The position numbers were made by a program, and so were the translations under genes. A stretch of DNA of 64,000 bases from Actinopolymorpha cephalotaxi (GTDB lineage Bacteria; Actinomycetota; Actinomycetes; Propionibacteriales; Actinopolymorphaceae): positions 2,130,850 to 2,194,849 of the forward strand of contig NZ_JACBZA010000001.1 in assembly GCF_013408535.1 (NCBI RefSeq), in the 5' to 3' direction. Numbering within the stretch: position 1 is the first letter of the stretch; the number at the start of each line of letters is the position of its first letter. Below are positions 40,910 to 46,992 of this stretch, one piece after another. Below the pieces are notes generated by a model. That model was not told where the DNA came from, did not search any database, and worked only from the letters and a program-made list of their open reading frames with translations.

Positions 40910-41743
40910 GTGACTGCGGACACCCGGCCACCAGGTCCCTCATCAGGTCCCCCACCAGGTCCCTCCGGACGCCGCGCGGAACCTCCCCGGGAAGGCCCGG
41001 GAGACACCGGCCTCCCTGCCGGTCGCTCGCTCGGCGACCTGTTCGCCCGGGTCGAGCGCGCCGAGTGGCCACCGCCCGACGGCACCTTCCGGGTGCTGCC
41101 GCAGCCACCGGGACGCACCGCGGCGGTGGTCGCCTTCACCGCGCACACGGTGGTCGCCGCGGACGTATCGCCCGAGTGGGTGCGCGGTGTACTCGACGGC
41201 TCCGAGGGCTCCGAGGGCTCCGAGGGCTCCGAGGGCTCCGAGGGCTCCGACGGCTCCGACGGCTCCGGTGCCACCGACCTGGGGGCGCCGATGAAGCCGG
41301 CGTTCCTGTCCGCCCTGGCCGCGTACACCGGCCGCCGGATCGGCGCGCTCGACCAGATGATGCTGGCCGGCCCACTGCCCGGTCGGCCGTCGCCGGAGCT
41401 GACGGGGCTACCGGAGCTGACCGAGATCACCGACTCGGGCCATCCCCGCGTACGCCGGGCGCACCGCTACCGCGACGACGTACGCGTGTACGCCGCGGAC
41501 GGCGGCCTCGTCCTGGTCGGCCGCGGGCTGGCCGGCCGGTGGGAGATGGCGTTCGAGGTCGAGCCCGACCGGCAGGGCCGCGGACTCGGCCGGTCGCTGG
41601 CCCTCGCGGCCCGCCACCTGCTGCCGCCCGGCGCCGGCGCGGTGTGGGCGCAGGTGTCACCGGGCAACGCCGCGTCGGTCCGGACGCTGCTGGCGGCCGG
41701 CTACCGTCCGGTCGGCGCAGAGGTGCTGCTCGTCGCACGGTGA
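40910..41743 (+). CDS. GNAT N-acetyltransferase with internal Gly-Ser-Glu repeat
   Basis: 277-residue protein. The C-terminal part is a GNAT domain (about 185-277): RWEMAFEVEPDRQGRGLGRS with the acetyl-CoA loop, then WAQVSPGNAASVRTLLAAGY. The N-terminal part (40-180) is a separate region of unknown fold (SLGDLFARVERAEWPPPDGT, PAFLSALAAYTGRRIGALDQ) interrupted at residues 97-120 by GSE repeats. GTG 40910 is used; an in-frame ATG at 40892 overlaps the divergent FetB start and would add six residues. The substrate is unknown. Confidence 0.78.
   Translation: MTADTRPPGPSSGPPPGPSGRRAEPPREGPGDTGLPAGRSLGDLFARVERAEWPPPDGTFRVLPQPPGRTAAVVAFTAHTVVAADVSPEWVRGVLDGSEGSEGSEGSEGSEGSDGSDGSGATDLGAPMKPAFLSALAAYTGRRIGALDQMMLAGPLPGRPSPELTGLPELTEITDSGHPRVRRAHRYRDDVRVYAADGGLVLVGRGLAGRWEMAFEVEPDRQGRGLGRSLALAARHLLPPGAGAVWAQVSPGNAASVRTLLAAGYRPVGAEVLLVAR
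41198..41269 (+). repeat. 9-bp coding microsatellite (Gly-Ser-Glu/Asp)x8
   Basis: Eight in-frame copies of GGCTCCGAG or variants: five GSE, two GSD and one GSG. The copies are identical at DNA level for the GSE part, a sign of recent slippage. The repeat encodes a flexible acidic linker between the two halves of the GNAT protein and keeps frame whatever the copy number. Confidence 0.9.
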
Positions 41744-43635: not shown

Positions 43636-43893
43636 TCAGCGCTGGTCGGGCGCGAGGTCGACGAACTGGTCGCGCGGCTCACCCGCTGCCGCGCTCATCG
43701 CGGAGGGGGCGGGTCCCGGCCGGCGCGGCTCGCGTACCCCGGCCGGCGGTGGCCCCGCGTCAGGCGGTCCGCCCGGCCCTGACGGCCCCGGAGGCAAGGA
43801 CTCCCGGCGCCTGCGCAGCCGGGAGAGCAGGCCCCCTCGCCGGCGCGGCGGATGCCCCACGCGGCGGGATCGTGGTCGAGGCCGTCCGGGCAT
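43636..43893 (-). CDS. Possible small Arg/Pro-rich protein
   Basis: 85-codon frame that starts 8 bases after the stop of the small HTH gene, so it could be the second gene of that transcript. It is Arg- and Pro-rich and low in complexity (GGLLSRLRRRRESLPPGPSG) with no domain. In GC-rich DNA such frames arise easily by chance; only position favours it. Confidence 0.3.
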   Translation of the reverse strand: MPGRPRPRSRRVGHPPRRRGGLLSRLRRRRESLPPGPSGPGGPPDAGPPPAGVREPRRPGPAPSAMSAAAGEPRDQFVDLAPDQR

Positions 43894-43901
43894 CGTTCCC
43901 C

Positions 43902-44132
43902 CTACTTGTGCTTGCGTCTGAGCAGACCGGCGCGGCCGGCGAACCGCTTGTGGACCGCCTGGCGACTGACGCCCAGCGCGGCGGCGATGACCTCCCAGGA
44001 GCAGCCCTGGACCCGGGCCCGGCGGACCTGGATCTCGGTCTCGGCGTCGAGTTGGCGCTCGAGCGCGGCGATCTGGCCCAGCGCTTCCAGTGGGTCCTTC
44101 GCCCGCAGCGTGTCCACGAGTGTGTCCGGCAC
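43902..44132 (-). CDS. Small helix-turn-helix DNA-binding protein
   Basis: 76-residue protein: an N-terminal acidic helix (DPLEALGQIAALERQLDAET, likely coiled coil) and a clear HTH (WEVIAAALGVSRQAVHKRF), ending in a basic tail (LLRRKHK). Proteins of this size and layout are common in actinobacteria, and some sit beside Clp N-domain genes; none is here. The GTG start at 44132 lies six bases after a consensus -10 box, so the message appears leaderless. Palindromes overlapping the promoter suggest autoregulation. Confidence 0.85.
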   Translation of the reverse strand: MPDTLVDTLRAKDPLEALGQIAALERQLDAETEIQVRRARVQGCSWEVIAAALGVSRQAVHKRFAGRAGLLRRKHK

Positions 44133-44138
44133 GGTGTC

Positions 44139-44167
44139 AATCTAGGTTGACGTCCGATGGTTGTCAA
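44139..44167 (-). promoter_or_regulatory. Consensus housekeeping promoter, leaderless, for the HTH gene
   Basis: On the minus strand TTGACA (44167-44162) and TAGATT (44144-44139) are separated by exactly 17 bases. The G of the GTG start codon is 7 bases after the -10 box, where transcription should begin, so the mRNA would have no 5-prime leader. This is the best promoter in the window. Confidence 0.85.
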
Positions 44168-44187
44168 CCAAAGTTGGCAACCATCGG
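44154..44187. promoter_or_regulatory. Large palindrome over the HTH promoter -35 region
   Basis: CCGATGGTTGTCAAC (44154-44168) and GTTGGCAACCATCGG (44173-44187) are inverted repeats matching at 14 of 15 positions with a 4-base centre (CAAA). Adjacent GGTTGAC (44145-44151) and GTCAACC (44163-44169) form a second, overlapping palindrome. The site covers the -35 box of the HTH promoter and faces the Pat gene, so it is a likely operator for one or both genes. Confidence 0.7.
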
Positions 44188-44236
44188 TGCGAGGTCGTTG
44201 TCCCCAGCGGGACGTTCATGAGCCGACCCGGCCGGA

Positions 44237-44290
44237 CCCCGGTTCGGACGGGACCCCGATCGACCCCGACCGACCCCGACCGAACCGGGG
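44237..44290 (+). promoter_or_regulatory. Long hairpin with tandem repeat loop in the Pat leader
   Basis: CCCCGGTTCGG (44237-44247) pairs perfectly with CCGAACCGGGG (44280-44290). The 32-base loop holds three near-copies of a 10-base unit (GACCCCGACC type). It ends 29 bases before GTG 44320. If transcribed it would be a stable leader structure; it may instead be a protein-binding site. Confidence 0.55.
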
Positions 44291-44319
44291 CGAAATGGAC
44301 CGCGGCTACATTCGTTCCT

Positions 44320-46992
44320 GTGACCGCCGACCTGCCGTACCCCGCCCGCTGGGAGGCCGACGTCGTGCTCCGCGACGGCGGTACGGCCCTCCTGCGGCCG
44401 ATCCGGTCCGACGACGCCGAACTGCTGGTGGCCTTCTACGCACGCGTGTCCGACGAATCGAAGTACTACCGGTTCTTCGCGCCGTACCCCCACCTGTCCG
44501 CGCGCGACGTCGAACGCTTCACCCAGGTCGACCACCGCGACCGGGTGGCGTTCATCCTGACCGTCGGCGACGAGATGATCGCCGTGGCCCGCTACGACCG
44601 GATCGGTCCGCGGGAGGCGGAGGCGGCGTTCCTGGTGCAGGACGCGCACCAGGGCCGGGGAGTGGGCAGCGTCCTGCTGGAGCACCTCGCCCAGGCCGCC
44701 CGGGAGAACGGCATCGAGAAGTTCACCGCCGAGGTGCTGCCGGAGAACCGCCGGATGGCCGTGGTCTTCCGGGAGGCGGGCTATGAGGTGACCGGCGACA
44801 TGGAGGACGGCGTTGTCACCTTCGCCCTGGAGATCGAGCCCACGTCGATGAGCATGGCGGTGATGGGTGCGCGCGAACACCGGGCCGAGGCCCGCTCGGT
44901 GGAACGCCTGCTCACCCCGGCTTCGATCGCGGTGGTCGGCGCCAGCCGGTCGCGGGACAAGGTGGGCCAGGCGCTGGTCCGCAACCTCGTGCTCGGCGGC
45001 TTCACCGGACCGGTGTACGCCGTGAACCCGACCGCGCGCGCGGTGGCCGGCGTGCCGGCGTACGGCAGCCTGCTCGACGTTCCCGGCGAGATCGACCTCG
45101 CGGTGGTGGCTGTTCCCGCGGACGCCGTCCGCGACGTGGTGATCGACTGCGCGGCCAAGGGGGTGCACGGCCTGCTGGTCGTCTCCAGCGGGTTCGCCGA
45201 GACCGGGCGGGAGGGGCGCGAACGTCAACGCAAGCTTGCGCGGCTGGCGCGGGCGTACGGCCTGCGGGTGATCGGCCCGAGCGCGCTCGGCATCATCAAC
45301 ACCTCGCCCGATCTGTGCCTGAACGCGTCCCTGTCGCCGGTGGTGCCGGCGCGCGGTGCGGTCGGCTTCTTCTGCCAGTCCGGCGAGCTGGGCTCGGTGA
45401 TCCTGGAGACGGTGGCCCGGCGGGGTCTCGGCCTGTCGACGTTCGTGTCCGCGGGCAACCGCGCCGACGTGTCCGGCAACGACCTGATGCAGTACTGGGG
45501 CGAGGACGCGGCGACCGAGGTGGTGCTGCTGTTCCTGGAGTCGATCGGCAACCCGCGGAAGTTCAGCCGAGTGGCCCGCCGGTTGGCGCAGACCAAACCG
45601 GTGGTGGCGGTGCGGTCCGGCCGGTTCACCCAGGGTGTGCCGATCGGCCACACCGTGCACCGTACGACCGTGCCGCAGGCCGCGGTCGACGCGATGTTCC
45701 GCCAGGCCGGGGTGATCCTGGTGGACACCCTGGACGCGATGCTCGACGTCGCCCAGGTGCTGGCGTACCAGCCGCTGCCCGCCGGGGGCGACCTCGCCAT
45801 CGTCGGCAACTCCGACTCCCTCGGCATGCTGGCCGCCGACTCCGCCGCCGAGGCCGGGCTGACGGTGGTCCGGCAGGCCGGTGCGCTGCCGCCCGACGCC
45901 ACCGCGGAGGACTTCGAGCGCGCGCTCGGTGAGGTGATCCACGACGAGGAGGTCGACTCCGTCCTGGCCGTGTGGGTCTCCCCGGTCGACCGCGACGGCG
46001 CCGACGTGGCCGAGGTGATCGCCCGGGTGGCGGGGGAGTGCACCAAGCCGGTGGTGGTGACGTTCCTCGGCAGCCAGGGCGTACCCGAACCCCTGCGCCG
46101 CTACGACGAGGACGGCGTGGCCGTTCGCGGCTCCGTACCCTCCTACCCGTCGCCCGACGCCGGCGTGCGCGCGCTGGCCAAGGTGACCGCGTACGCCCGG
46201 TGGCGGGCCAGCCCGCGCGGCCGGATCCCTCCGCTGGAAGGAATCGACGACGACCGCGCCCGGTCCATCGTCGCGGGCGTGCTGGCCGACCGGCCCGACG
46301 GCGGCGACGTCGAGGGCAAGGACCTGGACGACCTGCTGGCCTGCTACGGCATCGACATCTGGCCGGCGTACCCCGTCGGGTCCGCCGACGAGGCGGTGGC
46401 CACCGCCGAACGCCTGGGCTGGAACGTCGTCCTGAAGGCGACCGCGCCGCACCTGCGCCAGCGTCCCGACATGGCCGACGTGTGGCGCAACATCGACACC
46501 GAGGTGGAGATGCGGGACGCCTGGGCGACGATGGCCGGCACCATCGGCGAGCCGGAGCGGGCCGGGTTCGTGGTGCAGCAGATGGCGGCGCCGGGCGTAC
46601 CCGTGGTGATCGGGTGTGCGGAGGACCAGATGTTCGGCCCGATCGTGTCGTTCGGCCTGGCGGGTGTGGCCACCGACCTGCTCGGCGACCTCGCCTACCG
46701 CATCCCGCCACTGACCGACGTCGACGCGGCGGAGATGGTCCGGGAGGTGCGCGCGGCCCCGCTGCTGTTCGGCCACCGGGGCGGCGAACACGCCGACGTC
46801 GCCGCGCTGGAGGACCTGCTGCACCGGGTGTCCCGCCTCGCGCAGGACCTGCCGGAGGTGGTGACCGCCTACCTCCAGCCGGTGCTGTCCCGCCCCAGCG
46901 GGCTCACGGTGCTCGGCGCGCGGGTGCAGGTGGTGCCGGTCGAGCCGCAGGCCCGCACCGACTGGTACGCCCGCCGGCTCACCCGGCTCTGA
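44320..46992 (+). CDS. pat: Pat-type bifunctional GNAT acetyltransferase / ADP-forming acyl-CoA synthetase-like protein
   Basis: 890-residue protein. N-terminal GNAT domain (about 1-165) with DAHQGRGVGSVLLEHLAQAA. It is fused to an NDP-forming acyl-CoA synthetase-like part: CoA-binding domain (LLTPASIAVVGASRSRDKVG), ligase domains (VGFFCQSGELGSVILETVAR, SAGNRADVSGNDLMQYWGED) and a C-terminal ATP-grasp. Such Pat/PatZ-like proteins acetylate lysines, notably inactivating acetyl-CoA synthetase. In PatZ the synthetase part has lost catalysis and senses acetyl-CoA; whether HTVHRTTVP keeps the phospho-His is worth testing. GTG 44320 has no ribosome site, and a TACATT at 44307-44312 suggests a leaderless message. 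Confidence 0.9.
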   Translation: MTADLPYPARWEADVVLRDGGTALLRPIRSDDAELLVAFYARVSDESKYYRFFAPYPHLSARDVERFTQVDHRDRVAFILTVGDEMIAVARYDRIGPREAEAAFLVQDAHQGRGVGSVLLEHLAQAARENGIEKFTAEVLPENRRMAVVFREAGYEVTGDMEDGVVTFALEIEPTSMSMAVMGAREHRAEARSVERLLTPASIAVVGASRSRDKVGQALVRNLVLGGFTGPVYAVNPTARAVAGVPAYGSLLDVPGEIDLAVVAVPADAVRDVVIDCAAKGVHGLLVVSSGFAETGREGRERQRKLARLARAYGLRVIGPSALGIINTSPDLCLNASLSPVVPARGAVGFFCQSGELGSVILETVARRGLGLSTFVSAGNRADVSGNDLMQYWGEDAATEVVLLFLESIGNPRKFSRVARRLAQTKPVVAVRSGRFTQGVPIGHTVHRTTVPQAAVDAMFRQAGVILVDTLDAMLDVAQVLAYQPLPAGGDLAIVGNSDSLGMLAADSAAEAGLTVVRQAGALPPDATAEDFERALGEVIHDEEVDSVLAVWVSPVDRDGADVAEVIARVAGECTKPVVVTFLGSQGVPEPLRRYDEDGVAVRGSVPSYPSPDAGVRALAKVTAYARWRASPRGRIPPLEGIDDDRARSIVAGVLADRPDGGDVEGKDLDDLLACYGIDIWPAYPVGSADEAVATAERLGWNVVLKATAPHLRQRPDMADVWRNIDTEVEMRDAWATMAGTIGEPERAGFVVQQMAAPGVPVVIGCAEDQMFGPIVSFGLAGVATDLLGDLAYRIPPLTDVDAAEMVREVRAAPLLFGHRGGEHADVAALEDLLHRVSRLAQDLPEVVTAYLQPVLSRPSGLTVLGARVQVVPVEPQARTDWYARRLTRL

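What the first reader, a model, noticed from the sequence alone, without database searches (positions are those of the whole stretch)
44130..44190. Textbook leaderless promoter under a large palindrome for a small HTH protein
Seen: TTGACA-N17-TAGATT on the minus strand, with the GTG start exactly 7 bases after the -10 box, so the mRNA should lack a leader. Over the -35 box lies a 34-base palindrome (14/15 arms) and an overlapping GGTTGAC/GTCAACC palindrome. In this GC-rich window no other site matches consensus so well. Inferred: a very strong promoter held in check by a repressor, most simply the 76-residue HTH product itself, and possibly also controlling the divergent pat gene.
Basis: partly seen in the sequence, partly recalled or inferred. 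Interest (0 to 1): 0.62.

Follow-up and report, generated by a model that had tools for sequence, protein, structure and literature searches.

The report
Leaderless self-repressor with paired operators
A tiny DNA-binding protein in a soil actinobacterium appears to switch off its own gene through two matched DNA sites laid over its promoter; the same design recurs in many related bacteria, and a one-base difference in the spacing of the site separates it from the related drug-sensing protein ClpC2.

Summary
In detail: TTGACA-N17-TAGATT on the minus strand, GTG six bases later, the only such site (9/12 or better) in 64 kb. But the letters of the 34-base palindrome are private to this genome. 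Conserved instead are two 16-bp operators, GTCAAC-N4-GTTGAC, at 44163-44178 (over the -35) and 44136-44151 (over the -10), 27 bp apart.

The 76-residue HTH protein is a stand-alone relative of the N-terminal domain of ClpC2, a published autorepressor with the same half-sites. Of 90 distinct stand-alone HTH genes, 89 carry such a site (10/12 or better); all 155 closest sites (11/12 or better) have a 4-bp spacer, whereas all 57 from 30 ClpC2-type fusions have 5 bp. By DNA alone, the paired motif occurs in 78 of 296 genomes (reversed control 0); 22 of 30 loci read encode this HTH.

Best reading: a leaderless autorepressor, co-transcribed with a conserved 85-residue basic protein; control of pat is not supported. 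It also suggests that ClpC2 reads DNA through an N-terminal helix absent from both its crystal structures, against the published C-terminal assignment. Binding, transcript start, signal and the small protein's function are untested.

The parts
43902..44132 (-). Stand-alone 76-residue HTH protein (predicted autorepressor), GTG start, TAG stop
   Evidence: 8 of 8 family genomes; AlphaFold2 mean pLDDT 86.8; helices 2-11, 14-41, 46-53, 57-65
43938..43964 (-). Codons 57-65 (RQAVHKRFA), the predicted recognition helix
   Evidence: Q58 in 92 of 92 stand-alone and 29 of 29 fused homologues aligned
44163..44178 (-). Operator 1, GCCAACTTTGGTTGAC (11 of 12 to GTCAAC-N4-GTTGAC), over the -35
44136..44151 (-). 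Operator 2, GTCAACCTAGATTGAC (11 of 12), contains the -10; ends 3 nt before GTG
44162..44167 (-). -35 hexamer TTGACA
44139..44144 (-). -10 hexamer TAGATT
44130..44132 (-). GTG start codon, predicted transcript start (leaderless mRNA)
   Evidence: geometry here and in 81 loci with two sites; start not mapped
44154..44187 (.).
43636..43893 (-). Second gene of the predicted operon: 85-residue Arg/Pro-rich basic protein, ATG 8 nt after the HTH stop
   Evidence: 8 of 8 family genomes; dN/dS 0.17-0.27 in five pairs; no Pfam, PADLOC or PHROG match
44307..44312 (+). Separate -10-like TACATT of the divergent pat gene (GTG at 44320)

Best explanation
The HTH protein dimerises and binds the two GTCAAC-N4-GTTGAC operators that overlap the -35 and -10 of its own promoter, and so blocks RNA polymerase. 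When repression is lifted by an unknown signal, a leaderless mRNA starting at the GTG makes more repressor and, from the next cistron, the 85-residue basic protein. Shown here: the sites, their conservation with HTH genes, the conserved second gene, and the fixed 4-bp spacer that differs from the 5-bp spacer of the related ClpC2 fusions. Inferred: that the HTH protein itself binds them, that it does so as a dimer, that binding represses, that the mRNA is leaderless, and that the two genes share an mRNA.
For: Of 90 distinct stand-alone HTH genes, 89 have a site of 10/12 or better (69 have two of 11/12 or better, 17 one), and all 155 sites of 11/12 or better have N4. Site-to-site distance is 27-29 bp in 81 of 81 loci with two sites of 10/12 or better. 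The 515 kb of other DNA in the same 93 loci hold no N4 site of 11/12 or better, and Markov-resampled upstreams give 0.06 per set against 159. Reciprocal test: the motif occurs in 78 of 296 class genomes, reversed control 0; of 30 loci read, 20 have the HTH start codon 2-13 nt after the operator, 2 more hold the HTH, and 6 have, 3 nt after it, the ATG of a protein that looks like a serine hydrolase. In the own genome only this locus has two N4 sites (1 mismatch or fewer) side by side. ClpC2, with a homologous N-terminal domain, is a published autorepressor with the same half-sites duplicated over -35 and -10 and a predicted leaderless mRNA (PMC10030653).
Against: No binding, expression or transcript-start data were seen for this gene. 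Another repressor sharing the site, such as the genome's own ClpC2-like proteins, is not excluded. Foldseek found no PDB match at E 0.001 or better for the model. For the related RelI its authors report no evidence of DNA binding (PMC13284704), so the domain can serve another use.
Confidence: 0.85

Rival explanations
1. The sites are read mainly by a ClpC2-like fusion protein of the same genome (such as G000:C1:2001930-2002649), making this gene a target in a ClpC2 regulon rather than an autorepressor.
For: Same half-sites; that fusion gene has its own operator pair; its domain is homologous.
Against: All 57 sites (11/12 or better) of 30 fusion loci have N5, all 155 stand-alone sites have N4; the own genome keeps both kinds. 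18 of the 30 genomes with a fetched fusion also hold the exact N4 pair motif, so the difference is kept in shared cells.
Confidence: 0.08
2. The operon is a toxin-antitoxin pair: the HTH protein is a RelI-like antitoxin that autoregulates, the 85-residue basic protein the toxin.
For: RelI (PDB 9sdc) is the best sequence match among solved structures (E 1.5e-8; 2.2e-10); two small genes in an autoregulated operon is a TA layout.
Against: The second gene matches no Pfam, PADLOC or PHROG family, is Arg/Pro-rich, and is kept right after the HTH gene in 8 of 8 family genomes, unlike the patchy spread usual for TA pairs (general knowledge). In 71 of 80 homologous loci the next gene resembles Clp_N, a serine hydrolase, a transporter or permease, or an AAA ATPase. 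relSI has the toxin first and no reported inverted repeats.
Confidence: 0.1
3. The repressor jointly controls divergent pat through the same operators.
For: Divergent pat is adjacent in 4 of 8 family genomes, including another genus.
Against: pat has its own conserved -10 next to its start; its distance to the operators varies from about 40 to several hundred bp; pat was not found within 1.5 kb in 4 of 8.
Confidence: 0.1
4. The 34-bp palindrome as a whole is the functional operator, or forms a cruciform with its own role.
For: 15-nt arms, 14 of 15 complementary; 7 or more of 9 flanking pairs also complementary, with other letters, at one site in 5 other loci of the 92 tested, so longer dyads may sometimes add affinity.
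Against: The arm letters occur in no other of the 92 loci, and 86 of 92 have fewer than 7 of 9 flanking pairs; the 16-bp core is what is kept. It lies upstream of the predicted transcript. (Confidence raised from 0.04 to 0.06.)
Confidence: 0.06

Closest known systems
ClpC2 of mycobacteria (Rv2667; Taylor et al. 2023, PMC10030653)
   Same: Homologous N-terminal domain; GTCAAC/GTTGAC half-sites duplicated over -35 and -10; start codon a few nt after the inner site; predicted leaderless
   Different: ClpC2 is fused to a Clp_N-like domain that binds cyclomarin; its operator spacer is 5 bp, here 4 bp; here the next gene is a small basic protein
Split HTH + Clp_N operons of other actinobacteria (50 of 80 named loci)
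   Same: Same stand-alone HTH, N4 operators, same start geometry
   Different: Second gene is Clp_N there, a small basic protein here; none of my paper searches showed a description
RelI antitoxin of RelS-RelI (Rv2664; Han et al. 2026, PMC13284704)
   Same: Small protein with a related HTH
   Different: Sits after a RelE/ParE-like toxin gene; no inverted repeats reported upstream; no evidence of DNA binding reported
Cluster A mycobacteriophage immunity repressor (PDB 7r6r, PMC9283540)
   Same: Weak profile match in the HTH (E 0.005-0.007), aligning its T-R-Q-A-V with S56-V60 here; in that structure an Arg-Gln pair at the start of the recognition helix touches two guanines. That this is the same Arg-Gln pair is inferred
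   Different: Monomeric two-domain repressor on an asymmetric 13-bp site

Membership tests
ClpC2 (HTH-Clp_N fusion autorepressor) | N-terminal HTH-containing domain | tested here: met
   family profiles match 8ada (Rv2667 N domain) at E 0.006 and 0.003; the own-genome ClpC2-like N domain matches 8ada at E 2e-11 and the window HTH at E 5.6e-6
ClpC2 (HTH-Clp_N fusion autorepressor) | C-terminal Clp_N (ClpC1 NTD-like) domain | tested here: not met
   the 76-residue protein ends after the HTH; no Clp_N among its Pfam rows, whereas the own-genome fusion has it
ClpC2 (HTH-Clp_N fusion autorepressor) | Operator GTCAAC-n5-GTTGAC, often in two copies over -35/-10 | tested here: not met
   two copies over -35/-10 are present, but the spacer is 4 bp
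ClpC2 (HTH-Clp_N fusion autorepressor) | Represses its own promoter | not testable with these tools
   needs gel shift and reporter assay
RelI-type antitoxin | Encoded next to a RelS-like (RelE/ParE-like) toxin gene | tested here: not met
   the gene after it has no family match; the gene on its other side is divergent pat. RelS itself was not used as a query
RelI-type antitoxin | Small HTH protein similar to RelI | tested here: met
   9sdc at E 1.5e-8 and 2.2e-10 with family profiles
Leaderless sigma-70-type promoter | -10 hexamer 6-7 nt before the start codon, -35 17-18 nt before the -10 | tested here: met
   window: 6 nt and 17 nt; of 81 loci with two sites, 71 have TANNNT 6-7 nt before the start, 2 at 8-9, 8 none within the stretch searched
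Leaderless sigma-70-type promoter | mRNA 5' end at the start codon | not testable with these tools
   needs 5' end mapping

The most novel reading that the evidence does not exclude
The small HTH repressors and ClpC2 read the same half-site with the same kind of recognition helix and are kept apart in one cell by a single base pair of operator spacing (4 against 5). The helix that reads DNA in ClpC2 lies just after the crystallised N-terminal fragment and before the crystallised C-terminal one, so the published assignment of DNA binding to the Clp_N-like domain would be indirect or wrong. The module is a general self-repressing switch placed in front of unrelated effectors (Clp_N proteins, serine hydrolases, transporters, AAA ATPases, and here a small basic protein without known relatives).
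Probability: 0.65. Interest if true: 0.72.

Novelty: new variant of a known kind. Interest (0 to 1): 0.6.

Why it matters
It joins a large set of small actinobacterial genes to one testable mechanism, with an operator simple enough to predict regulon members from DNA. It offers a clean natural case of possible repressor insulation by one base pair of half-site spacing. It also makes a direct, checkable challenge to how ClpC2, which protects mycobacteria from cyclomarin, is thought to bind DNA. And it flags a conserved operon partner of unknown function.

Tried and rejected
Rejected: the 34-bp palindrome as the conserved operator. Rejected: joint control of pat. Considered and lowered: toxin-antitoxin pair.

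Led nowhere: Foldseek on the window model gave no match at E 0.001 or better. The VIA-align second look gave only ordinary HTH or helical matches, best Z 5.5; neither 8ada nor 9sdc is among the listed rows, which is no evidence either way. The AlphaFold model of the own-genome ClpC2-like N domain was poor (mean pLDDT 71.7; the block 71-80 averages 42; only a short helix 70-73), so it does not confirm the recognition helix; this counts somewhat against the ClpC2 part of my reading. A search for the small basic protein beyond the family (147 genomes, 39 with a match) gave, apart from the 8 family genomes, 31 weak matches (E 4e-7 to 9e-4). The 12 of these that I read look like C-terminal tails of another protein sharing a REPR-type motif, with no N4 site of 10/12 and no family HTH in the fetched stretches. 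The paired motif in viral contigs (29 stretches) is probably mostly chance: 1 of 29 holds a family HTH, and most are of low G+C. Single N5 matches in the own genome are background (224 places against 10 for the reversed pattern), so I count as operators only sites beside a start codon. Five further inner-half pairs in the own genome (7 places, reversed control 0) were not tied to genes.

Limits: start codons were chosen with the operator in view, so the distance to the start is partly circular, though frame and start-codon use constrain it (84 ATG, 9 GTG of 93). In one search the -10 was sought only 4-11 nt before the start. Two N6 matches of 11/12 near starts do not appear under the non-overlap rule; at 10/12 or better one search shows 167 N4 sites and 4 of other spacers. 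The 80 named loci are the best 80 of 159, many from Streptomyces. Three loci were duplicates and were dropped for the 90-locus count; still hold them (93 loci, 159 sites). In one search one stand-alone locus (L105, 126 aa) and one fusion (L217, no start codon found, no site) were left out of the alignment. The fusions form one clade (support 0.992), so the spacer difference may be one old change since conserved. AlphaFold was run on monomers only.

Full report
What is there. The window lies in a 6.86-Mb genome whose nearest named relatives found here are Actinopolymorpha rutila, A. pittospori and A. alba. On the minus strand a 76-residue HTH gene (43902-44132) starts with GTG six bases after TAGATT, with TTGACA 17 bases further up. 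A scan of the whole 64 kb by the same rule finds no other such promoter.

The conserved unit. Eight of eight genomes of the family have an orthologue. Their upstream sequences keep two 16-bp sites, GTCAAC-N4-GTTGAC, 27-28 bp apart: in the window 44163-44178 and 44136-44151, each 11 of 12 to the consensus. The right half of the outer site contributes the -35 TTGAC; the inner site holds the -10. The outer-arm letters of the 34-bp palindrome occur upstream of no other locus of the 92 tested. Longer dyads around a site do occur elsewhere with other letters: 7 or more of 9 flanking pairs in 6 of 92 loci, the window's included. The GGTTGAC/GTCAACC pair is simply the two inner half-sites.

How general it is. 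A scan of 84,980 species genomes with the orthologue alignment gave 159 relatives, of which the best 80 were returned. With 13 loci from family genomes (8 orthologues and 5 paralogues) these make 93, or 90 after removing three duplicates. Of the 90, 69 have two sites of 11/12 or better, 17 have one and 4 have none; at 10/12 only one (L034) has none. All 155 sites of 11/12 or better have a 4-bp spacer although spacers 1-9 were allowed; two N6 matches seen without the non-overlap rule do not appear under it. The same loci elsewhere (515,509 bases) hold 12 such sites of all spacers and none with N4; Markov-resampled upstreams gave a mean of 0.06 per set of 93. In 81 loci with two sites, 71 have TANNNT 6-7 nt before the start codon, 2 have it 8-9 nt before, and 8 lack it; the -35/-10 spacer is 17 or 18 in all 73 with both.

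Reciprocal test. The paired motif alone was searched in 296 genomes of the class: 78 have it, and the reversed motif occurs in none. Of 30 loci fetched, 20 have a start codon of a family HTH 2-13 nt after the operator and two more contain one. Six have, exactly 3 nt after it, the ATG of a protein resembling by eye the PF00144 serine hydrolase; one has an alpha/beta-hydrolase-like ORF (4 nt, by eye); one has nothing recognisable. The genomes of those last eight loci were searched, and all eight hold a close family HTH (E 2.6e-26 or better; I did not check that each is stand-alone). In two of them it lies about 33 bp from a second copy of the motif (coordinates). So the operator probably also marks target operons in trans.

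Relation to ClpC2. Taylor et al. 2023 (PMC10030653; passages and sections 10-11 read) showed that mycobacterial ClpC2 represses its own promoter through CGTCAAC-n5-GTTGACG, in many species duplicated over -35 and -10, with a suggested leaderless mRNA. They solved residues 4-72 (a dimer) and 94-252 (with cyclomarin) and placed DNA binding in the C-terminal domain from its charge and R185/R189 mutants. Here, 30 ClpC2-type fusions from the class gave 57 sites of 11/12 or better, all N5; 28 loci have two, one has one, one has none. The own genome has both kinds: N4 at this locus, an N5 pair before its ClpC2-like gene at 2001930, and a single N5 site directly before an in-frame ATG of a second fusion (L006). 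The 72-residue chain 8ada ends at Gly-Val, just before the segment that aligns with our predicted recognition helix. As the other construct starts at 94, neither structure contains that helix. The part shared by stand-alone and fused repressors is this N-terminal domain. That ClpC2 reads DNA through this helix is therefore inference. It fits the paper's use of a dimerisation mutant and a C-terminal-only variant to argue that the dimer, which forms through the N-terminal domain, is needed for tight binding. It has to explain the reduced binding of R185A/R189A, and my own model of a ClpC2-like N domain was of low confidence there. MAFFT places four extra residues in the fused proteins between the conserved Asp-Pro region and the HTH, a possible cause of the longer spacer; this is a hypothesis.

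What it controls. The next gene, 43636-43893, is an 85-residue Arg/Pro-rich protein kept after the HTH gene in 8 of 8 family genomes (5-47 nt after its stop), with GVREPRRP invariant and dN/dS 0.17-0.27 in five pairs. It has no Pfam, PADLOC or PHROG match. In the 80 named loci the next gene resembles Clp_N in 50, a PF00144 serine hydrolase in 8, an ABC transporter in 5, an FtsX-like permease in 4, an AAA ATPase in 4, the small basic protein in 2, and is unassigned in 7 (four representatives named by Pfam, the FtsX one just under its cut-off; the AAA name rests on a motif read by eye). Divergent pat has its own conserved -10 and was not found within 1.5 kb in 4 of 8 genomes.

Literature. Han et al. 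2026 (PMC13284704; outline, passages and section 22 read) describe RelI, a small HTH antitoxin with similarity to an HTH region of ClpC2, homologues fused to other domains, and no inverted repeats upstream of relS. So an HTH in ClpC2 has been noted in print, but in the passages I read it is not tied to the operator. A 2026 proteomic study (PMC12913811; passages) repeats the promoter-binding model for ClpC2; the words helix-turn-helix and operator do not occur in its text. PMC9283540 was seen in passages. Searches that combined clpC2, operator, HTH, spacer, GTCAAC and Streptomyces (listings only apart from the papers named) showed no paper in the held open-access library on the stand-alone repressors, the 4-bp spacer or the spacer difference. 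Most subscription papers are not held.

Verdict.

Noticed in passing
G000:C1, 9 places incl. window 44159-44169: GGTTGNCAACC occurs 9 times in the own genome against 2 for the reversed pattern; the other eight places were not tied to genes.
   Followed up: no
L006 (G000:C1:2732862 onward): A second ClpC2-like fusion in the same genome (its Clp_N part judged by eye) has one N5 site (11/12) ending directly before an in-frame ATG, and no N4 pair.
   Followed up: partly
L001, L039, L056, L061, L078, L107: Operator dyads extended by 7-9 of 9 flanking pairs with unrelated letters; whether this tightens binding is unknown.
   Followed up: partly
window 44237-44290: 16-nt inverted repeat (94%) and three GACCCCGAYC units in tandem between the operators and pat.
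   Followed up: no
L022 / L032 (A. alba), between HTH gene and pat: Long inverted repeat around CACGTATACGTG in the widened intergenic region, perhaps a small mobile insertion (read by eye).
   Followed up: no
L018, L019, L020, L030: Upstream of the HTH gene lies what looks by eye like the 3' end of a LuxR-type gene in place of pat (pat not found there).
   Followed up: partly
L296 (viral contig): Family HTH after one operator pair, and a tandem array of motif matches spaced 27 nt about 2 kb further on.
   Followed up: partly
L307 (Mycobacterium phage prophi104-2): Distant HTH relative annotated as antitoxin, preceded by a BrnT-like toxin, in line with the RelS-RelI layout.
   Followed up: no
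window about 41180-41270, minus strand: Short tandem Ser-Glu-Pro-type repeat in the N-terminal part of a 428-aa ORF (seen in the translation).
   Followed up: no
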